From Candidatus Doudnabacteria bacterium CG10_big_fil_rev_8_21_14_0_10_41_10 (lineage in GTDB: Bacteria; Patescibacteriota; Doudnabacteria; UBA920; 2-01-FULL-50-11): 39,524 bases of DNA. Positions 2,648 through 29,961 of this stretch are shown here, in pieces. The stretch lies in contig PFAJ01000015.1 in assembly GCA_002773695.1 (NCBI GenBank), positions 1 to 39,524 on the forward strand, read 5' to 3'. Both the position numbers and the translations under genes were made by a program. A model generated the notes under the pieces. The model was not told the DNA's origin and searched no databases. It was given only the letters and a program-made list of their open reading frames with translations. Numbering within the stretch: position 1 is the first letter of the stretch; each line of letters opens with the position of its first letter.

Positions 2648-3685
2648 ATGAGTAATCTTGATAAGGAAAAAATTCTATCATTTGCCCAAAAAAAAGGTCA
2701 GATACGATCGAAAGATTTGGTAGGTAATTATAAAGTGTCACGTCAGTACGCTTCCTCATTGTTGAAGGGTTTAGTTAAAACCGGAAAATTATTAAAAGTA
2801 GGATCTACAAATAAAGCTTTTTATGTCCTTCCCCAGTACGCTTCAACACACCTTGAAGTGTTTCCTACACGGATCAGAAAAAAATATAAAAATAAGGGTT
2901 TGGAAGAACATGTGGCGCTCGATGATATAGAAAATGAGTTTCCCTTACTTTTGAAATTATCGGAAAATGTGCGAAGCATTTTTACCTACGCCTTTTCTGA
3001 AATGTTGAATAATGCTATCGAACACTCAGAGTCAGATTGGATTGAGATAGAAATAATATTAGAAAAAAAAGAGCTGAACTTTAAAATCAATGATTTTGGA
3101 ATTGGTGTTTTTAGAAACGTTATGAAGAAAAGAAGCCTTAATTCAGAACTTGAAGCTACGCAGGATTTATTAAAAGGTAAAACTACTACGCAACCAAAAT
3201 CCCATTCAGGCGAAGGAATTTTTTTTACTTCAAAAGCCGCGGATTTTTATGAATTAGAAAGTTATGGTTTCCAATTAGTTGTCGATAATAAAATAAACGA
3301 TGTATTTTTTAACAAGGTGAAAGCTGATAAAAAAGGGACAAGGGTTGGATTTACGATAGCGACAAGTTCGACTAGACACCTCAATCATGTTTTCAAAAAA
3401 TACACAAGTAAGGTAGATAGCGGAAGCGGTTTTGATAAAACCGAAATTCAGGTAAAGCTTTATACAATCGGAGGGGTCTATGTATCACGCTCGCAGGCAC
3501 GAAGAATAATAGCAGGATTGGATAAGTTTAGGTCTATTATTTTAGATTTTAAAAAGGTTCCCATGGTAGGACAGGCATTCGCCGATGAAGTATTTAGAGT
3601 GTTCAGGAATCGGTATCCCAATATAAAAATCAAGGCGATCAATACTAATGAAGAGGTTAAATTCATGATTGATAGAATTGAATAA
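2648..3685 (+). CDS. wHTH - GHKL/HATPase - STAS-like (DUF4325) regulator
   Basis: N-terminal winged HTH (IRSKDLVGNYKVSRQYASSLLKGLVKTGKLLKVG); N-box FSEMLNNAIEHS and NDFGIGVF; C-terminal YVSRSQARRIIAGLDKFRSIILDFKKVPMVGQAFADEVFRVF resembling DUF4325. Confidence 0.85.
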   Translation: MSNLDKEKILSFAQKKGQIRSKDLVGNYKVSRQYASSLLKGLVKTGKLLKVGSTNKAFYVLPQYASTHLEVFPTRIRKKYKNKGLEEHVALDDIENEFPLLLKLSENVRSIFTYAFSEMLNNAIEHSESDWIEIEIILEKKELNFKINDFGIGVFRNVMKKRSLNSELEATQDLLKGKTTTQPKSHSGEGIFFTSKAADFYELESYGFQLVVDNKINDVFFNKVKADKKGTRVGFTIATSSTRHLNHVFKKYTSKVDSGSGFDKTEIQVKLYTIGGVYVSRSQARRIIAGLDKFRSIILDFKKVPMVGQAFADEVFRVFRNRYPNIKIKAINTNEEVKFMIDRIE

Positions 3686-6050: not shown

Positions 6051-6320
6051 ATGAAGAAAATTGTTAAAAAAAGGGCAATCCGCAGACTAAAGATCATTGA
6101 AGGGCAAATCCGGGGTTTGCAGAAGATGGTTGATGAGGAAAAATATTGTGTGGATATTATTACCCAGTCAATGGCGGTCAAACAGGCCTTGTCCGGTGTT
6201 GAAGGTTTGGTTTTGGAAAACCATTTATCCACGCATGTCGTTCATCAGATGAAGCATGGCGACGATAAAAAAGCCACAAAAGAATTACTTAAAATTTATA
6301 AGTTATCAAACAAATCATAA
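6051..6320 (+). CDS. csoR: Metal-sensing transcriptional repressor, CsoR/RcnR (DUF156) family
   Basis: IRRLKIIEGQIRGLQKMVDEEKYCVDIITQSMAVKQAL...LENHLSTHVV family signature. Confidence 0.9.
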   Translation: MKKIVKKRAIRRLKIIEGQIRGLQKMVDEEKYCVDIITQSMAVKQALSGVEGLVLENHLSTHVVHQMKHGDDKKATKELLKIYKLSNKS

Positions 6321-6324
6321 AAAT

Positions 6325-6804
6325 ATGAAGAAAAAAATAACCTATCTTATCGTTTTCGGATTAATCATTGGCGCTGGTTTTCTTTTTTACCAAACAGATC
6401 GTAACGGAGGACGTCTGGTTGATTCCGTTTTAGCAAGTACCGATATTACCGTGTACAAAACACTAACCTGCGGGTGTTGCGTAAACTATATTGGTTATGC
6501 CACTCGGCAAGGTTTGGAAATAAAAGCAGAGACCGTGAATAATCTTGAACAAATAAAAATGGACTATGAGATCCCAGAAGATATGTGGAGTTGCCATACT
6601 TCTATAATGGGAGATTATATAGTGGAAGGTCACATTCCGCTCGAAGCTGTTGAAAAGCTGGTTTCGGAAAAACCAGATATTCGCGGGATTGCTATGCCTG
6701 GCATGCCCTCTGGCTCCCCGGGGATGCCGGGTTCAAAAACCGGGCCGTTTGAAATTTATTCTCTCAACCACGACGGTAGCACCTCGCTGTTTATGAGTCT
6801 ATAA
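6325..6804 (+). CDS. DUF411 metal-binding protein, membrane anchored
   Basis: ITVYKTLTCGCCVNYIGY...MWSCHTSIMGDYIVEGHIPLEAVEKL...IRGIAMPGMPSGSPGM; ATG at 6325 preferred to the ORF-track start at 6256, which overlaps csoR. Confidence 0.9.
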   Translation: MKKKITYLIVFGLIIGAGFLFYQTDRNGGRLVDSVLASTDITVYKTLTCGCCVNYIGYATRQGLEIKAETVNNLEQIKMDYEIPEDMWSCHTSIMGDYIVEGHIPLEAVEKLVSEKPDIRGIAMPGMPSGSPGMPGSKTGPFEIYSLNHDGSTSLFMSL

Positions 6805-6806
6805 TT

Positions 6807-7334
6807 ATGGAAAAAATAGCCTTCCTTACATTTTTTGGATTATTTTTTTTGGTCACGCCGGCTTTTGCTCATTGTCCTTTGTGTACTATCGGGGCGGGGG
6901 TTATTGCGTCTATAGCCGCTTGGCTTGGGGTTAGCACTTTAGTTATCGGAGTTTTACTTGGTGCTTTTGCTACCGCGCTAGGACTTTGGATAGCGCGGAT
7001 TATTAAAAAGAAATATTTCCCACGGCAAGATTTGGTAGTCGCGGTTGTAATATTTTTATCTACAATTTCACCGATCTTTCCTATCGCTGGGGGAAAAAAA
7101 AGTTCAATTTATATTTCTCTTGTGGGGGATTATGGTTCACTTCTTAACAGAACCTATGTAATCGATTTGTTTTTGATGGGGTCTTTGCTCGGCGCTTTGA
7201 TTATGATCGTTTCTCCTTTTCTAAGCAGGAAAATTACAAAATGGCGAAAAGGTAAAATGTTTCCATATCAAGGGGTCACGATCACTTTTATTCTTTTAAT
7301 AATTACCTCAATAACACTCCAGTTCACCATATGA
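6807..7334 (+). CDS. Membrane protein with CPLC motif, metal-operon associated, unknown function
   Basis: Signal peptide then AHCPLCTIGAGV; several TM segments; 2-bp gap to upstream gene. Confidence 0.8.
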   Translation: MEKIAFLTFFGLFFLVTPAFAHCPLCTIGAGVIASIAAWLGVSTLVIGVLLGAFATALGLWIARIIKKKYFPRQDLVVAVVIFLSTISPIFPIAGGKKSSIYISLVGDYGSLLNRTYVIDLFLMGSLLGALIMIVSPFLSRKITKWRKGKMFPYQGVTITFILLIITSITLQFTI

Positions 7335-7771
7335 ATTCTTTGTTGACAGTTTTTACAACAATCATCGCATTATTTTTTTTACTGCTCGCGGTAAAGAGTT
7401 TGTTTAAAGGAAAATTTTGCGTCATTTGCTCAAGTATCAGTTTTACCTGGGCAACTTATCTTGTATTAAATAAACTTGGATATTTTCAAGACACGGTTTT
7501 ATTGGGGATTTTGATGGGGCAGACTGTAGTGGGGATTTATTACCTTATAGATAGAAAAATAAAAGAAGACTTGCGCATTTTTCGGTTGCCTTTTATTTTA
7601 TCCCTGACACTGGCAGCCTACTTTACCCTTAATCCCGTAAAAGAGGGACTGCCTGTGTTTTTGTTGCTCGTGATTTTGTGGGTGGTATTTATTCTAACAT
7701 ATACTTTTAGGCGTCAGTCAGGTTTTGGTGGATTTGTGAAGAAAATAATTGAGTGTTGTAAAAATTGGTAA
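7331..7771 (+). CDS. Small membrane protein with FCVICSS motif, unknown function
   Basis: Overlaps upstream stop by 4 nt; about four TM segments; CVIC motif. Confidence 0.8.
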   Translation: MNSLLTVFTTIIALFFLLLAVKSLFKGKFCVICSSISFTWATYLVLNKLGYFQDTVLLGILMGQTVVGIYYLIDRKIKEDLRIFRLPFILSLTLAAYFTLNPVKEGLPVFLLLVILWVVFILTYTFRRQSGFGGFVKKIIECCKNW

Positions 7772-7784
7772 TTAAACAAAAAAA

Positions 7785-8741
7785 ATGGCAAAAATAGATA
7801 ATTGCTGCCACGAAGAAGGTAGTCGCGGATCAGAGACTGAAAAAACCGAAGAAAGTAGATCAAATAATAATTTTTGGAAGATTATCGCTCTTGTCTTCAT
7901 CGCTTTACTTTTCGCAACGCAGGTTTTTGGCGTTAATATAAAATCACGGATGGTCGGGGTCATTGAAAGCTATCAAACGACAAAATTAGAGCAGGCGGTT
8001 TTGCCGGCAGGAGGGGTAGATTTGCCGGTAGTCTGGGGCGATTTGGGCGCGCAGATGGTTGCGGTTGGAGTTATAGATCCGCAAGAATTCGAAGAACTTT
8101 ATCAAAAACGAGAGGGGTTAAGCGACGAGATGAAGGCCGCGCTTTATAGTTCCAATAACGGACGGATTAAAATAACCTCTGACAATGCTCACGTATTGCT
8201 AAATTTATTATGGGCTTTTGGGTTAAGTAATAAAAATTCTATATTGGAAGAAGGCCCAATGGTAGACGAGAAGTATGGCGGGGATGCCGGCAAGTTCGCC
8301 TCTACCGGCGGGTGGAGCCTTGGTATTGGCTCGGCCATGGATCATTACAGTGCGCATGAGTTTGCCGTTTTGACCCCGGCGCAACAAGAACTCGTGGAGA
8401 GAGTTTCAAAAAATATTTATCGTCCGTGTTGCGGCAATTCGGTTTATTTCCCCGACTGCAACCACGGCATGGCAATGCTGGGACTTTTGGAATTGATGGC
8501 CGCCCAAGGCGTTGTGGAGGATGAGATGTATAAAGCGGTTTTGCAAGTGAATTCTTTTTGGTTTCCCGACACTTATTTAACTATTGCTAAATACCAGAAA
8601 GAGAAACACGGGATTCCATGGGATCAAGTTAGTCCCAAAGAAGTTTTGGGCTCGGTATTTTCCAGCGCGGCCGGCTACCAGGGAATTTTGGCAGAGATTG
8701 AGCCGCCAAAGGCAGGCGGAGGGCCAAGTTGCGGAGTATAA
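7785..8741 (+). CDS. Membrane-anchored Cys/His-rich protein of unknown function in metal operon
   Basis: N-terminal DNCCHEE, TM segment, YRPCCGNSVYFPDCNHGMAMLGL, C-terminal GGGPSCGV. Confidence 0.85.
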   Translation: MAKIDNCCHEEGSRGSETEKTEESRSNNNFWKIIALVFIALLFATQVFGVNIKSRMVGVIESYQTTKLEQAVLPAGGVDLPVVWGDLGAQMVAVGVIDPQEFEELYQKREGLSDEMKAALYSSNNGRIKITSDNAHVLLNLLWAFGLSNKNSILEEGPMVDEKYGGDAGKFASTGGWSLGIGSAMDHYSAHEFAVLTPAQQELVERVSKNIYRPCCGNSVYFPDCNHGMAMLGLLELMAAQGVVEDEMYKAVLQVNSFWFPDTYLTIAKYQKEKHGIPWDQVSPKEVLGSVFSSAAGYQGILAEIEPPKAGGGPSCGV

Positions 8742-8750
8742 TAAATTTAT

Positions 8751-10913
8751 ATGGAACACAATCATCATCACAATCAGTCGTCTTCATCTTATACTTGCCC
8801 GATGCATCCAGAGGTTCACAAAGACAAACCGGGAATGTGTCCGGAATGCGGGATGAACCTTATAAAAGGGAAGAATAAAGATAATCAACACCATCATAAT
8901 CACCAAGGGCTCAACAAACGTTCCAGCGCTAAAGCTATGGATGGCAGGCATGCAGGGCACAGCACTAACATATTCAAAACCAAGTTTTGGGTAAGTTTGG
9001 TTTTATCTGTCCCCGTCGTCTCTTATTCAGACATTGTTCTGAATTTATTAAATTATCAAGCCCCGGTTTTTCCCGGTTCAAAATTTTTACCGTTTGTTTT
9101 AGGATCAGTAATATTTTTTTACGGCGGTTTAGTTTTTTTGCAAAGCGCCTATCGTGAACTCAAAGCCAGGATGCCCGGCATGATGACGCTAATTGCGCTT
9201 GCCATAACCACGGCTTATGTTTATAGCGTGTATGTAGTTTTTACCGGTGGCGAAAAAACATTGTTTTGGGAGCTGGCAACTTTAATCGTCGTAATGTTAC
9301 TCGGACACTGGATAGAAATGCGGGCGGTAAGCGGCGCGCAAGGCGCTTTGAAAGAACTTTCGAAACTGTTGCCAGATGAGGCCGAAGTAATCCGTGAAGG
9401 AAAAACCATCATGGTTTCCTTGGATGAAGTTAAAACAACCGATCTTGTTTTGGTAAAGCCTGGAGGAAAGATACCAACCGACGGGGTGGTTTCCGAAGGT
9501 AGCTCTGATGTGGATGAAGCCCTGGCAACCGGCGAGTCCAAGCCGGTTGAAAAAAAGAAAGGAAGTGAGGTTATTGCCGGCACCATAAATGGCGACGGGT
9601 CTTTGAAAATTGAAGTTACAAAAATTGGCGACGAAACTTTTTTGGCGGGAGTTATGCGGCTCGTTGCCGAGGCGCAAGCTTCCAAATCGCGGATGCAGCT
9701 ACTTTCCGACCGCGCCGCTTATTATTTAACAATTATCGCTGTCGTTACCGGTACCATAACTTTTGCAACATGGCTTGCGTATGCCGAACCAGCTTTTGCC
9801 ATAGAAAGAATGGTTGCGGTATTGGTTATCGCCTGCCCGCACGCCTTGGGGCTTGCTATCCCTTTAGTCGCCTCAATTTCCACTACCAAAGCGGCCAACA
9901 ACGGATTTTTGGTCAAACAACGAATGAGCCTGGAGGCGGCGCGAAAAATTGACGTGGTGTTGTTTGATAAAACCGGAACGCTTACGAAAGGTGAATTCGG
10001 CGTTGATACAATTGTCCCTTCCGTCGGTAACGACGAAGATGAAGTATTACAGTTAGCCGCCTCGGTAAATTCGCGTTCCGAGCATCCAATAGCTCGTGCG
10101 ATAGTAAAATTTGCAAACGAAAAAGGAATTGATTTGAAGCCAGTAAAGAATTTCGAAAGAATTGCGGGCAAAGGCGCACGGGGAGAAGTGGGTGCTCAAA
10201 ATCAAAAAGTGCAAGTAGGCAGTCCGTCATTAGCTGAAGAGTTAGGCGTTCAAATCGACAGTTCTTTGCGACCACGGATAGAAGAATTGTCTGGGCAAGG
10301 AAAAACAGTTATTCATGTAATTTCTGAAAATAAATTGATTGGTAGTATCGCGCTTGGAGATATTATTAGACAAGAATCAAAAGAGGCGATTAAACAACTC
10401 AAACAGATGGGAATAAAATCGGCGATGATTACCGGGGACTCGGAAGACGTCGCCAAGTGGGTCGCCAAAGAACTTGAATTGGACGAGTATTTCGCTAAGG
10501 TAATGCCTGAACAAAAATCGGATAAGGTAAAACTTTTGCAGTCGAAAGGTCAGAAGGTTGCGATGGTCGGTGACGGCATCAATGACGCGCCGGCATTGAC
10601 CCAAGCAGATTTGGGAATTGCTATTGGAGCAGGCACTAACGTCGCGATTGAATCTGCCGGGATAATTTTAGTTAAAAATGATCCGTGCGATATTGTGAAG
10701 ATTGTTCGGCTCTCAAAGATGACCTATACAAAAATGATTCAAAATCTATTTTGGGCAGCCGGATACAATATTGTCGCCATACCGCTGGCCGCCGGCGTGT
10801 TGGCGTTTAAAGGCATAACTTTGCAACCGGCACTGGCCGCGCTTTTTATGTCGCTGTCAACCATTATCGTTGCTATTAACGCGGTGATGTTAAAGAGGAA
10901 ATCATTAAGTTAA
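8751..10913 (+). CDS. copB: CopB-type heavy-metal P1B ATPase (CPH motif) with N-terminal heavy-metal-binding domain
   Basis: YTCPMHPEVHKDKPGMCPECGMNL; His-rich linker; VLVIACPHALGLAIP; DKTGTLTKGE; MVGDGINDAPALTQADLGIAIGAG. Confidence 0.95.
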   Translation: MEHNHHHNQSSSSYTCPMHPEVHKDKPGMCPECGMNLIKGKNKDNQHHHNHQGLNKRSSAKAMDGRHAGHSTNIFKTKFWVSLVLSVPVVSYSDIVLNLLNYQAPVFPGSKFLPFVLGSVIFFYGGLVFLQSAYRELKARMPGMMTLIALAITTAYVYSVYVVFTGGEKTLFWELATLIVVMLLGHWIEMRAVSGAQGALKELSKLLPDEAEVIREGKTIMVSLDEVKTTDLVLVKPGGKIPTDGVVSEGSSDVDEALATGESKPVEKKKGSEVIAGTINGDGSLKIEVTKIGDETFLAGVMRLVAEAQASKSRMQLLSDRAAYYLTIIAVVTGTITFATWLAYAEPAFAIERMVAVLVIACPHALGLAIPLVASISTTKAANNGFLVKQRMSLEAARKIDVVLFDKTGTLTKGEFGVDTIVPSVGNDEDEVLQLAASVNSRSEHPIARAIVKFANEKGIDLKPVKNFERIAGKGARGEVGAQNQKVQVGSPSLAEELGVQIDSSLRPRIEELSGQGKTVIHVISENKLIGSIALGDIIRQESKEAIKQLKQMGIKSAMITGDSEDVAKWVAKELELDEYFAKVMPEQKSDKVKLLQSKGQKVAMVGDGINDAPALTQADLGIAIGAGTNVAIESAGIILVKNDPCDIVKIVRLSKMTYTKMIQNLFWAAGYNIVAIPLAAGVLAFKGITLQPALAALFMSLSTIIVAINAVMLKRKSLS

Positions 10914-20961: not shown

Positions 20962-22485
20962 ATGTTGTCGGAAACTTTTCCAAAAGATTTGCAAAATCCG
21001 GTAAATTTGATTGCTCAATTACAAAAACAACCTGAAAAATACTGGCAGGAACGTGGTTTTCTAATGGCAAAGGATTTATTTTGGCAAAAAACTCAACGTG
21101 TCCCCGCTTATAAAAAGTTTTTAGCCGGTCGCAATATTAATCTAAAATTACCTGATACGGTTAGTGATTTTGATAAAATTCCCCCGGTAGATAAAGATAA
21201 TTATTTAAGAAAATATAAAAGAAGTGATTTGTGCTGGGACGGTAATTTTTCAAACCAACATTGGGTGATTTCCACTACCTCTGGTTCTACCGGTAAACCT
21301 TATTATTTTCCCAGACAGGATTTTCAAGACCAACAGTACGCGGTCACTGCAGAACTATATCTTCGGACAAATTTTGAGATCCATAAAAAAAGCACTTTAT
21401 ATATAGTGGCGTTTCCGATGGGGGCTTGGATTGGCGGGCTATTTACTTATCAGGCATTAAAAAATCTTTCCAAAAGAGGCGATTACAGGCTAAGCATTAT
21501 CACTCCCGGTATTAGTACCGCGGACGTTTTAAATGCTTTGCAAAATTTAGGCAAAGATTTTGACCAGGTTATCATCGGCAGTTACGCTCCGTTTTTAAAA
21601 GATATTCTAGACGAAGGGGATCGATTGGGACTGGATTGGAAACAGTATAATTTGGGTTTTGTATTTTCCGCTGAAGGATTTAGTGAGGACTTTCGTGACT
21701 ATGTGGCAAAAAAGACCGGAATTGATAATATTTTTAAAAAAACTCTGAATCATTACGGAACGGTGGATATGGGGACAATGTCTTACGAAACTCCGCTCGC
21801 AATACTTGTTCGAAGGCTTGCTTTAAAAAACCAGAATATTTTTCGCAGGCTTTTCCCCAAAGCCTCAAAATTACCAACTTTAACCCAATATATTCCAGAG
21901 CAGTTTTATTTTGAAGAAGTCGAGGGAAGACTCCTCTGCTCATCGTTTAGCGGTTTACCTTTGGTACGTTATGATTTGAAAGATTCCGGCGGGGTTATTG
22001 GCCTGGAAGAAGTAAAAGAAATTTTTTTGAAAGAAGGGATAGATCTTTCAAATGAAGTTAAGCTCGCTGGAATCTCCGACACTATATGGAACATACCTTT
22101 TGTTTATGTTTACGAACGGACCGATTTTTCAGTTAGTTTTTTTGCTTTCCAAGTCTACCCGGAAACCATCCGAAAAGCGCTTATGGAGGATAAAGCAAGA
22201 GAGTACACTACAGGGAAGTTTACGATGCTGGTTCGGGAAAATGAACAAATGGATCAAGTTTTACAGATAAATATTGAACTTAAAAAAGGGTTTTCAGAGT
22301 CAAACGAAACGGTAAAAGCGTTAACCGAAGAAATTACAAATATATTAACAGCCGAAAATTCTGAATACCGAAAAACGAAAGAAATGTATCCGGAAAAAAC
22401 CGTTCCCGAGATCATATTGTGGCCTTATGAACATGAAAATTTTTTTAAGAGAGGAGTGAAACAAAAATGGATAAAAAACCGATAA
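20962..22485 (+). CDS. PaaK/CapK-like adenylate-forming enzyme
   Basis: STTSGSTGKPYYFPR P-loop-like motif; GLPLVRYDLKDSGGVI. Confidence 0.82.
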   Translation: MLSETFPKDLQNPVNLIAQLQKQPEKYWQERGFLMAKDLFWQKTQRVPAYKKFLAGRNINLKLPDTVSDFDKIPPVDKDNYLRKYKRSDLCWDGNFSNQHWVISTTSGSTGKPYYFPRQDFQDQQYAVTAELYLRTNFEIHKKSTLYIVAFPMGAWIGGLFTYQALKNLSKRGDYRLSIITPGISTADVLNALQNLGKDFDQVIIGSYAPFLKDILDEGDRLGLDWKQYNLGFVFSAEGFSEDFRDYVAKKTGIDNIFKKTLNHYGTVDMGTMSYETPLAILVRRLALKNQNIFRRLFPKASKLPTLTQYIPEQFYFEEVEGRLLCSSFSGLPLVRYDLKDSGGVIGLEEVKEIFLKEGIDLSNEVKLAGISDTIWNIPFVYVYERTDFSVSFFAFQVYPETIRKALMEDKAREYTTGKFTMLVRENEQMDQVLQINIELKKGFSESNETVKALTEEITNILTAENSEYRKTKEMYPEKTVPEIILWPYEHENFFKRGVKQKWIKNR

Positions 22486-24683
22486 TTTATGATCCAAAAA
22501 CGGAAACGCTGGAATCATTTAAACAATCGCGCCACATTTCAGAGATTGTTGACCAGTATCGAGAAATGGTTTACGAGCTTTATTCGGTACGGTTTCCAGA
22601 ATCCCGGCTAGATCCTGAAATAAAAACCAAGCAACAACAATTTTACAGCGAGCATTTAGAAAATGCTTTATCTGAATTGGCAGGGGTATGGTTTTATTTT
22701 CCTTGGAATCAAAAATTGGTTCATTATTTAAAAGAGGATTTACATCAAGAGCTGCGAACCGCAAGAAATAAAAATATTGTCACTAAAGCCGAGCAGGAAA
22801 AACTGTACGATTCAACAATTGGGATAGCCGGATTGAGCGTTGGGAGTCACGCGGCGTTAACTTTGGCTTTGTCGGGGATTGGAAAAAGAATGAAACTGGC
22901 TGATCCTGACAATATTTCCGGTTCGAATCTAAATCGAGTACGCAAAGGATTTGGGACAGTCGGTAAAAACAAAGCTTTGCTCACGGCACAGGATATATAC
23001 GAAATCAATCCTTATATGGAAATTGAGATTTTTGAGGAAGGAGTTAATATTGAAAATATCAACAGATTTTTTAATGATCCAACAAAGTTGGATTTATTGG
23101 TTGAGGAGGTTGATGATTTGAGATTGAAGATTTTGTTGAGAGAACAGGCAAAAAAGGAAAACGCTCCGGTAGTTATGGCGACCGATAACGGCGACAATGT
23201 TATTGTTGACATAGAGCGATATGATTTGAACAGCGGTACAAAACTGTTTAATGGTTTGGCTGGTGATATAAATTATCATGATTTTAAAAATTTATCACAA
23301 CGAGAGTTGCCAAAATTATCCACTTTGATTGCTGGAAAAGATTTGGTAGTTCCTAAAATGCAGGACTCTTTGTTAGAAGTTGGCAAGACTCTCTATTCAT
23401 GGCCTCAGCTTGGACTGGCCGCAACTTTATCCGGAGTTGCGGTTGCTTATGTCGCAAAAAAGATATTGCTAAATGAACGAATTCGGGATGGAAAATTGGA
23501 GATTAATTTGGATTCGATTTTTGATCCAGAATACAATTTTCCTGATAAAATAAAATACCGACAACAAAAAATACAAAATTTTCATAAACAAATAGGTATG
23601 GTTGATGATTTATTTGGGTTGTTGCAGGAAATTATTCACAATTCAGTAAATGCCCCGTCAGGTGACAATACCCAGCCGTGGCGTTTTGAATTGGGTAAAA
23701 ATTTCATAAATTTATATAATTTTCCAGATCGTGATAATCCAGTGTTAAACTATGAACAAAGCGGCTCGTATATTGCCCACGGTTGCTTACTTGAGAATTT
23801 ACGATTAAACTGTTTATATGGTGGTTATGAGCCTGAGATCAAACTTTTTCCGGACATCAAACAGCCAAATTTGGTAGCAACGGTAAGTCTGAAAGAAAAA
23901 ACCGAAACTCGAGATGAATTACAAAGTTATATAAAAGATCGTCATACTAATCGGCGGCCATACAATAATCAACCTCTTACCGAGAAACAAAAAACCGAAA
24001 TTAAAAATTGTGTTTTGGAACTGGGATTGGAAGATGGTTATCAGGTTAAGATTGTGGCAGATGAAAAAGAAGTTTATCAACTAGCAAAGACCGCAGCGTC
24101 GGTTGAAGAAGTTATTTTAGAGAATAAAACTACCCACCGATTATTTTTTGATGATATTGTTTGGACCAAAAGAAAAGAGAGCAAGGTGAAATCTGGTTTA
24201 TATCTAGCCACCATGGAATTCGCAGTCCCGCAAAAAGTATTTTTTTGGCTAGCAAGCCACTGGCCGATTATGAAATTGATGAATAGGTTTGGACTATCAC
24301 GATTTATAGCCCGGGAAGACACAAAACTTTACGCAAAAAGTTCAGCGATTTGCGGTGTAGTAATCCCTAGAACCACTCCTGAATCTTATATAAACGCCGG
24401 AAGGATTTTACAAAGAGTTTGGTTAAAGACGGTGAAATTGGGGTTAGCCCTTCATCCTGTGAGCGCTTTGCCATTTGCCGCTAGAAGAGCGCAAGGTTCC
24501 GGTTCAGAAGTTTTTAACAGTTTACATAGAGAGAAAATAACAAAAAATTACGGAGAGCAACTTTCTTTATTTAAAATAACCACAGAATTTGTTGGAATGG
24601 TTTTTCGAGTAGGTTTTGCACAACCTCCTAGCGCAGTTTGCTCAAAAAAAGAAGCACAAATAAAAATAATCTCTGAAAAATAA
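22467..24683 (+). CDS. ThiF/E1-like adenylyltransferase fused to nitroreductase domain
   Basis: TIGIAGLSVGSHAALTLALSGIGKRMKLADPDNISGSNLNR; C-terminal EIIHNSVNAPSGDNTQPWRFE and RHTNRRPYNNQPLT. Confidence 0.9.
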   Translation: MDKKPIIYDPKTETLESFKQSRHISEIVDQYREMVYELYSVRFPESRLDPEIKTKQQQFYSEHLENALSELAGVWFYFPWNQKLVHYLKEDLHQELRTARNKNIVTKAEQEKLYDSTIGIAGLSVGSHAALTLALSGIGKRMKLADPDNISGSNLNRVRKGFGTVGKNKALLTAQDIYEINPYMEIEIFEEGVNIENINRFFNDPTKLDLLVEEVDDLRLKILLREQAKKENAPVVMATDNGDNVIVDIERYDLNSGTKLFNGLAGDINYHDFKNLSQRELPKLSTLIAGKDLVVPKMQDSLLEVGKTLYSWPQLGLAATLSGVAVAYVAKKILLNERIRDGKLEINLDSIFDPEYNFPDKIKYRQQKIQNFHKQIGMVDDLFGLLQEIIHNSVNAPSGDNTQPWRFELGKNFINLYNFPDRDNPVLNYEQSGSYIAHGCLLENLRLNCLYGGYEPEIKLFPDIKQPNLVATVSLKEKTETRDELQSYIKDRHTNRRPYNNQPLTEKQKTEIKNCVLELGLEDGYQVKIVADEKEVYQLAKTAASVEEVILENKTTHRLFFDDIVWTKRKESKVKSGLYLATMEFAVPQKVFFWLASHWPIMKLMNRFGLSRFIAREDTKLYAKSSAICGVVIPRTTPESYINAGRILQRVWLKTVKLGLALHPVSALPFAARRAQGSGSEVFNSLHREKITKNYGEQLSLFKITTEFVGMVFRVGFAQPPSAVCSKKEAQIKIISEK

Positions 24684-28054: not shown

Positions 28055-29764
28055 ATGTACGAATATAAACTTAACCATATAGAGTCTGCTTCGCGCAGCC
28101 CGAACACAAAAATTGAACAAGAAAGCGCTTTTGAAATTGATGCGGCATCCTTTCAAAATGGTGTCACGGATTATTTTAAACTGATTTCTACAAACGAAAA
28201 AAGCGCCAAAGATTTAAAGGTTTACGTAGAAAAATTTTATGATGAACAAAAGATTTCTTCACCTGAAAACAGAGATGCAATACTCGGTTTCGCTGTTGCG
28301 GCGGCTAAACATCGCAATCCCCACATTGTTTTTGAAGTTTTGAAAAAAGAAGGTTTTTTGTCCGATAATCCGGAAAAATTAAATAGATTTTTAGAGTGTC
28401 TCGGCTCTCAAAAAGAGGATTTTCTTCCTGCTTTAGCGAAGGTTAATAATCCTGTAGAACAAAATCTTGGTATAGATGTAGACCCGGAAAAAGAAATTCG
28501 TCAGATATATTTATTTGAACAACTGACAAGGGCGATCCGAGCAAAAAATCCCAGCCAAGCTCATGCAATAGCGGAACAACTGTGCGGTCAAGTCGTGGAC
28601 ATTACCCACGCAACAGATTCATCGAGATTAAAGGCCATTTTACGTTCGGGAGAAATTTGGTCCAGTGAGGGTGGTGGTCATTACTACGGTAACGGGGTTT
28701 ACGCTGGCGTTAACGGTGGTTTTAGACATTGGGGCGATCAAATGATATATTTTAAACAAGTTCCCGCGGAAAAGCTGTTGCCCGTAATAAACGCTAAACA
28801 ACCCATGACAAACATACCGATAGAAAAAATAAAAATAAGCGACCCAAAACGTTTTGACGATATTGACGGACTTTCTCCGGATGATCCTTTTTTCTATTTG
28901 CCTTCAATAATCGAAGCTACGCCAAATCTTGATGAAATGAACAGTTATAGATTTCCCGGTTTTATGGAACCGGTAGATAAAGCAGTTTTAAAACAAATTG
29001 ACAATTTACTCGGCTTGGTGAAAGTTGAAAAAGCCTTCGATGATTTTTATGGAATCTACGATCGGGTTTACGTGCAAGATAAGCGTCCTTTGGTATGCAT
29101 GGCAGTTATGAACTCTTTATATACTGTTGGCGAAATAGTATGGGATGAAAAAACTGAACTGAATGTCGCAGAACCAATAAACCTTGAGGATGAAAAGGAA
29201 GTCAATGTTATTGTTGAACAAATATTGAGTTGTTACGTAACCGAGAGTCGTGATATTGATTCTCCCCATGGCCGACGGCATATAGAGCGGGTTATTGAAA
29301 ATATTAAAATTTTATCGGACGAAATAAAAGCAGATATTAAAACTCGCCATATGGCTATAATAGCTGCCGCCGCGCATGATATTATTCGATATACTCGGGA
29401 CATTTCTCCAAACTGGGCGTCCGCTCTTTGGGTAAAAAGATTATTAAACGGATTGTTGGAACGCCAATCTTTAAAAAAGATACGAGACGCCATTGTTCAA
29501 CATAGTAGTCCAAAAGATGATCGGATTAACGATACTGTCATTACTCAACTTCTTTATGATGCGGATAAAATGGATACGAGAGCGGATAGATTTCATATGC
29601 ATATAAGGGATGAACAATATAATAATGTGTCAGACGGACTATTTGAAGATTATATTGAGATGGTAATGGAGAGCGTTTATTCAAAGGTAGCCCGTGAATA
29701 TTTAGAAGATCTTTTAAAACAGCAAAAACATCGTAAAGAAACGTTGCCTCATAAACAATTTTAG
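28055..29764 (+). CDS. ADP-ribosyltransferase-like region fused to C-terminal HD domain
   Basis: DITHATDSSRLKAILRSGEIWSSEGGGHYYGNGVYAGVNG (ART-like H and Y motifs, tentative); HD residues in SPHGRRHIERV, AAAAHDIIRYTR, IVQHSS, LYDADKMD. Confidence 0.7.
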   Translation: MYEYKLNHIESASRSPNTKIEQESAFEIDAASFQNGVTDYFKLISTNEKSAKDLKVYVEKFYDEQKISSPENRDAILGFAVAAAKHRNPHIVFEVLKKEGFLSDNPEKLNRFLECLGSQKEDFLPALAKVNNPVEQNLGIDVDPEKEIRQIYLFEQLTRAIRAKNPSQAHAIAEQLCGQVVDITHATDSSRLKAILRSGEIWSSEGGGHYYGNGVYAGVNGGFRHWGDQMIYFKQVPAEKLLPVINAKQPMTNIPIEKIKISDPKRFDDIDGLSPDDPFFYLPSIIEATPNLDEMNSYRFPGFMEPVDKAVLKQIDNLLGLVKVEKAFDDFYGIYDRVYVQDKRPLVCMAVMNSLYTVGEIVWDEKTELNVAEPINLEDEKEVNVIVEQILSCYVTESRDIDSPHGRRHIERVIENIKILSDEIKADIKTRHMAIIAAAAHDIIRYTRDISPNWASALWVKRLLNGLLERQSLKKIRDAIVQHSSPKDDRINDTVITQLLYDADKMDTRADRFHMHIRDEQYNNVSDGLFEDYIEMVMESVYSKVAREYLEDLLKQQKHRKETLPHKQF

Positions 29765-29934: not shown

Positions 29935-29961
29935 AAGTCGCTTTATAGGAGCGGCTTTTTT
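29935..29961 (+). terminator. Rho-independent terminator
   Basis: agtcgctttataggagcggctttttt. Confidence 0.7.

What the first reader, a model, noticed from the sequence alone, without database searches (positions are those of the whole stretch)
28055..29764. Possible ADP-ribosyltransferase-like domain fused to an HD phosphohydrolase-like domain
DITHATDSSRLKAILRSGEI...YYGNGVYAG resembles the H and Y motifs of PARP/DarT-like ARTs, and the C-terminal region has the H...HD...H...D pattern of HD hydrolases. The N-terminal ~150 aa are unassigned. A transferase joined to a hydrolase would suggest writer/eraser, toxin or nucleotide-processing activity. The ART call is from short motifs only.
Basis: partly seen in the sequence, partly recalled or inferred. 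Interest (0 to 1): 0.72.

Follow-up and report, generated by a model that had tools for sequence, protein, structure and literature searches.

The report
Orphan ART-like and HD hydrolase protein
A small-genome bacterium carries a one-off protein whose tail is a clear metal-dependent phosphate-cutting (HD) domain and whose middle looks, weakly, like an enzyme that transfers ADP-ribose from NAD; the pairing is unusual but its activity is untested.

Summary
The 569-aa ORF at 28055-29764 (+) is real and both quoted motifs are present. The C-terminal HD domain is well supported: profile score 43 bits against at most 14.8 for 5000 shuffles, hhalign probability 96%, and ligand set H409, H441-D442, D504 plus H483. 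It belongs near the small stand-alone HD (PF01966) hydrolases, the group with YpgQ-like solved structures. The central domain (about residues 174-372) is probably ADP-ribosyltransferase-like, with H185 in strand 1 and Y216 in G-x-G-V-Y, but only remote evidence supports this: hhalign to an independently collected phage H-Y ART profile gives P = 7e-4 (0 of 400 shuffles), HMMER about the top 1% of shuffles, and a seeded AlphaFold model finds mostly ARTs in the PDB without significance. The usual third acid is not at the aligned place (R344), so transferase activity is doubtful. The N-terminal 173 residues match nothing and look helical. No relative with the same architecture was found in 380 sampled phylum genomes, the order, phage, plasmid or viral sets. 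The gene has no antitoxin, secretion or phage neighbours. Verdict: partly supported; an orphan, new combination of known domain kinds.

The parts
28055..29764 (+). 569-aa ORF, three-part protein
   Evidence: single open frame, HD homology in frame
28055..28573 (+). N-terminal region, residues 1-173, predicted all-helical (low confidence), no relatives
28574..29170 (+). ART-like central domain, residues 174-372 (core 180-245)
28607..28609 (+). H185, strand-1 histidine aligned with the H of H-G-T in ARTs
28700..28702 (+). Y216 of G-N-G-V-Y, aligned with the Y of the G-x-G-V-Y motif in ARTs
29258..29590 (+). HD phosphohydrolase core, residues 402-512
29279..29281 (+). H409, first HD metal ligand
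   Evidence: invariant alignment
29375..29380 (+). H441-D442, HD dyad
   Evidence: invariant alignment
29501..29503 (+). H483, extra histidine shared with three of four relatives
29564..29566 (+). D504, last HD metal ligand (DADKMD)
   Evidence: invariant alignment
29935..29957 (+). terminator-like stem with T tail downstream; the number of such sites is not above chance

Best explanation
A cytosolic, single-copy, lineage-specific protein of a reduced-genome (Patescibacteria-like) bacterium: a helical N-terminal part, an ART-like fold with the histidine and tyrosine that clamp NAD in H-Y type ARTs, and a C-terminal HD domain of the H...HD...D (probably one metal) type. The most likely working is that the HD domain hydrolyses a phosphate or pyrophosphate bond of a nucleotide (shown: domain and ligands; inferred: activity and substrate), while the ART-like domain binds NAD or ADP-ribose and either modifies a target or acts as the sensing part (inferred). 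The two would then act on the same NAD/nucleotide pool.
For: HD: 43.3 bits to a profile of four HD proteins, each of which itself scores above the PF01966 cut-off, against a best of 14.8 in 5000 shuffles; hhalign probability 96%, P 2.5e-9; PHROG 3921 E = 2e-6 over 382-512; invariant ligands; relatives of this type match solved HD hydrolases including 5dqv, the YpgQ structure, a mononuclear Mn nucleotide pyrophosphohydrolase (PMC8177086). ART: hhalign score 25.8, P 7e-4, 0 of 400 shuffles, register H185 to H-G-T and Y216 to G-V-Y; score 22.9 with a smaller profile, 1 of 200 shuffles and 0 of 87 real decoy fragments; phmmer with one independent ART finds the same place, though below any significance; the seeded model has pLDDT about 70-83 over much of residues 174-245 and eight of its nine PDB matches are ARTs or (by my own knowledge) ART-fold toxins, best Tpt1 2'-phosphotransferase.
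Against: No Pfam, NCBIfam or PADLOC match for the ART region. HMMER puts it only at rank 49 of about 5000 shuffles. PDB fold matches have E of 0.67 or worse, and the model was built on an alignment with ARTs, so it leans to that fold. The unseeded model is unusable (pLDDT 36.7). The place of the ART third acid is R344 in the alignment. No relatives, so conservation of H185/Y216 cannot be tested.
Confidence: 0.5

Rival explanations
1. The central domain has the ART fold but is catalytically dead; it serves as a ligand-binding or scaffold part and only the HD domain is an enzyme.
For: Third acid not at the aligned position (R344); ART similarity confined to the first about 65 residues.
Against: H185 and Y216, the NAD-clamping pair, are both kept; some active mono-ARTs and Tpt1-type enzymes lack the glutamate (own knowledge); the alignment of the third strand is uncertain.
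Confidence: 0.25
2. The central region is not an ART; the H-x-T...G-V-Y resemblance is chance or convergence, and the protein is an orphan HD hydrolase with an unrelated N-terminal two-thirds.
For: No curated family matches; HMMER rank 49 in about 5000; no relatives.
Against: hhalign P 7e-4 in the expected register, improving as the independent profile grew; the downstream segment GDQMIYFKQVPAEKLL follows the phage pattern GSEVIEVKIPKKRL by eye.
Confidence: 0.2
3. A toxin or injected effector (DarT-like or polymorphic-toxin-like ART) with an HD self-antidote.
For: ARTs of the H-Y type are common in phage polyvalent proteins and toxin systems (PMC5512222).
Against: No adjacent small antitoxin, macrodomain, secretion or phage genes in the ORF lists around it; flanked by YceI and a sigma factor; no Pfam Macro above cut-off (only a short piece with three stops) and no ADP-ribosylglycohydrolase match in the whole genome; the N-terminus shows no obvious signal peptide.
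Confidence: 0.05

Closest known systems
PF01966 HD, YpgQ-like stand-alone HD hydrolases (PDB 5dqv, 3dto, 3djb, 2pq7)
   Same: H...HD...D ligand set, DAD[KR]xD motif, similar spacing; profile of relatives matches these structures
   Different: Here it is the C-terminal part of a 569-aa protein; lacks the GAIGIARAF-like segment that two of the relatives have after DADxxD
ART-PolyVal (PF18760) and related H-Y ARTs in phage polyvalent proteins
   Same: H-x-T, helix, G, G-x-G-V-Y, then a strand of the VIEVKVPKxxL type
   Different: No significant match of the family model itself; third acid not aligned; about 100 residues inserted before the last strands; not in a phage or conjugative context
DarT (PF14487)
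   Same: ITH...L..IL..G wording at the start of the domain (own recollection of the family)
   Different: No Pfam match; the DarT model does not find this protein in its own genome
PARP catalytic domain (PF00644)
   Same: H and Y of the H-Y-E triad pattern; fold search lists PARP1, PARP4, PARP15 without significance
   Different: No Pfam match; glutamate not identified; no PARP regulatory domain seen

Membership tests
HD domain superfamily (PF01966) | H...HD...D metal ligands in order and spacing | tested here: met
   H409, H441-D442, D504 invariant in the alignment with four PF01966 proteins
HD domain superfamily (PF01966) | Statistically significant similarity to family members | tested here: met
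   43.3 bits vs max 14.8 in 5000 shuffles; hhalign 96%; direct Pfam match absent
HD domain superfamily (PF01966) | Metal-dependent hydrolysis | not testable with these tools
   needs an enzyme assay
Dinuclear HD hydrolases (YqeK, HD-GYP) | Two extra histidines (H...HD...H...H...D), plus further His in PDE types | tested here: not met
   between the HD dyad and the last D only one extra histidine, H483, is present in the sequence; motif rule from PMC8177086
ART superfamily, H-Y clade (PARP/HYD2 type) | Strand-1 histidine | tested here: met
   H185 aligns with H of HGT
ART superfamily, H-Y clade (PARP/HYD2 type) | Strand-2 tyrosine | tested here: met
   Y216 in GNGVY aligns with GEGVY
ART superfamily, H-Y clade (PARP/HYD2 type) | Acid (E or D) on strand 5 | tested here: inconclusive
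   aligned residue is R344, with D342 and E360 near; alignment uncertain there
ART superfamily, H-Y clade (PARP/HYD2 type) | ART fold | tested here: inconclusive
   only a seeded model, core pLDDT about 70-83, best PDB E 0.67; unseeded model failed
ART-PolyVal PF18760 | Match to the family model | tested here: not met
   no match in own genome or by hmmscan
DarT PF14487 | Match to the family model | tested here: not met
PARP PF00644 | Match to the family model | tested here: not met
DarTG-type toxin-antitoxin | Adjacent macrodomain antitoxin | tested here: not met
   no Macro above cut-off in the genome; the sole piece has three stops and lies on another contig

The most novel reading that the evidence does not exclude
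A self-contained NAD-using enzyme in which an H-Y ART domain makes an ADP-ribosylated (or NAD-derived) product that the fused HD domain then hydrolyses: a one-chain ADP-ribosylation cycle using an HD fold as the eraser or processor, for which no description was found in the library searched.
Probability: 0.1. Interest if true: 0.7.

Novelty: new variant of a known kind. Interest (0 to 1): 0.35.

Why it matters
If both domains are active, this would be an ART joined to an HD hydrolase, a pairing I did not find described, and a test case for HD domains acting on ADP-ribose compounds. If only the HD domain is active, it is one more orphan hydrolase of a reduced genome. Either way it shows that a lineage with about 1 Mb of DNA keeps a large protein that its sampled relatives lack.

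Tried and rejected
Close relatives by scans of genome, viral, phage and plasmid sets: none. Phylum and order genome searches gave only HD-only relatives; other weak matches that were read proved unrelated (RecO, a tRNA dimethylallyltransferase-like protein, a penicillin-binding protein and the like). These rows were used for searching only and entered no statistic. Single-sequence AlphaFold was useless. A first HMMER test with nine ARTs was not significant (rank 274 in about 5000). PDB sequence matches to an antibody and to RNA polymerase were judged chance.

Full report
Observation. The ORF 28055-29764 (+) is open for 569 residues from an ATG, in a genome of 1.08 Mb in 70 contigs whose sampled relatives have 0.5-1.5 Mb.

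HD domain. Pfam gives no direct match, but PHROG 3921 does (E 2e-6, residues 382-512) and whole-genome searches found four HD-only proteins (E 1.8e-5 to 3.9e-4), each above the PF01966 cut-off. A profile of those four scores residues 376-569 at 43.3 bits against a best of 14.8 in 5000 shuffles, and hhalign gives 96%. H409, H441, D442 and D504 are invariant, and H483 is shared with three of the four relatives. The profile of these HD proteins (built with this one included) matches solved HD hydrolases, among them 5dqv, which the HD review lists as YpgQ, a mononuclear Mn pyrophosphohydrolase of nucleotides; that review gives H...HD...D as the usual mononuclear motif and H...HD...H...H...D as the dinuclear one (PMC8177086). 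The sequence here fits the first better. The same review warns that cofactor and substrate cannot be inferred from sequence alone.

Central domain. No curated family matches. I collected H-Y ARTs without using this protein: the PARP model found a 1807-aa phage-like protein in a phylum genome, whose ART scores weakly with ART-PolyVal and PARP, and further scans of viral contigs gave more. Against the resulting profile of 23 sequences, residues 140-375 score 25.8 by hhalign (P 7e-4; best of 400 shuffles 19.7), aligned H185 to H-G-T and Y216 to G-x-G-V-Y. With the earlier nine-sequence profile the score was 22.9, with 1 of 200 shuffles higher and none of 87 real decoys. HMMER is weaker: rank 274 with the first profile and 49 with the second, in about 5000 shuffles each. 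A model seeded with these ARTs has pLDDT about 70-83 over much of residues 174-245 and under 50 for most of the rest. Its nine PDB matches are Tpt1, several PARPs, two Rhs toxin domains (ARTs by my own knowledge) and one kinase, none significant; the best viral match is a Tupanvirus orphan (E 3.7e-3). The seeding makes this a compatibility check, not independent proof. The polyvalent ART family is described as H, Y and D in strands 1, 2 and 5 (PMC5512222); here the last position falls on R344 in the alignment, with D342 and E360 near, so the third residue is open.

N-terminal part. Residues 1-173 match nothing and are predicted helical at low confidence.

Distribution. No relative of the N-terminal plus central part appears in the four family genomes, the 49 order genomes or the 380 phylum genomes searched, nor in viral, phage or plasmid sets. 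The two genome-contig scans used short exact or near-exact peptide patterns, so distant relatives could be missed.

Neighbourhood. Upstream lies a YceI-like protein, downstream an ECF-type sigma factor, and farther off a histidine kinase, a response regulator and glucose-6-phosphate dehydrogenase. G+C is even across the region. There is nothing that looks like an antitoxin, a secretion system or a phage. The genome, 94% complete, has no Macro domain above cut-off and no ADP-ribosylglycohydrolase match.

Conclusion. Shown: a real ORF and an HD domain with its ligands. Probable (about 0.75): an ART-like fold in the middle. Unknown: activity, substrate, and whether the two domains work together. 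Literature searches of the held library for ART with HD fusions returned no description of such a protein; only passages around the search terms were read.

Noticed in passing
22467-24683 +: ThiF plus nitroreductase-like fusion protein matching NCBIfam Rv1355c family (452 bits, cut-off 476).
   Followed up: partly
2648-3685 +: HATPase plus STAS-like DUF4325 protein with a winged-helix-looking N-terminus.
   Followed up: no
8751-10913 +: Metal-transporting P-type ATPase-like ORF next to ORFs that look like metal-handling proteins at 6256-8741 (read from the translation).
   Followed up: no
L076 (genome G006, C1 near 374459): The search reported an open frame of 24963 aa in an order relative; the frame I read at that place looks like a UvrD-type helicase, so the number may be an artefact or a giant ORF.
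   Followed up: partly
L032:3001-3081: Phage protein of 1791 aa with an R-S-E type ART whose YGDGVYAG string resembles YGNGVYAG here by chance.
   Followed up: yes
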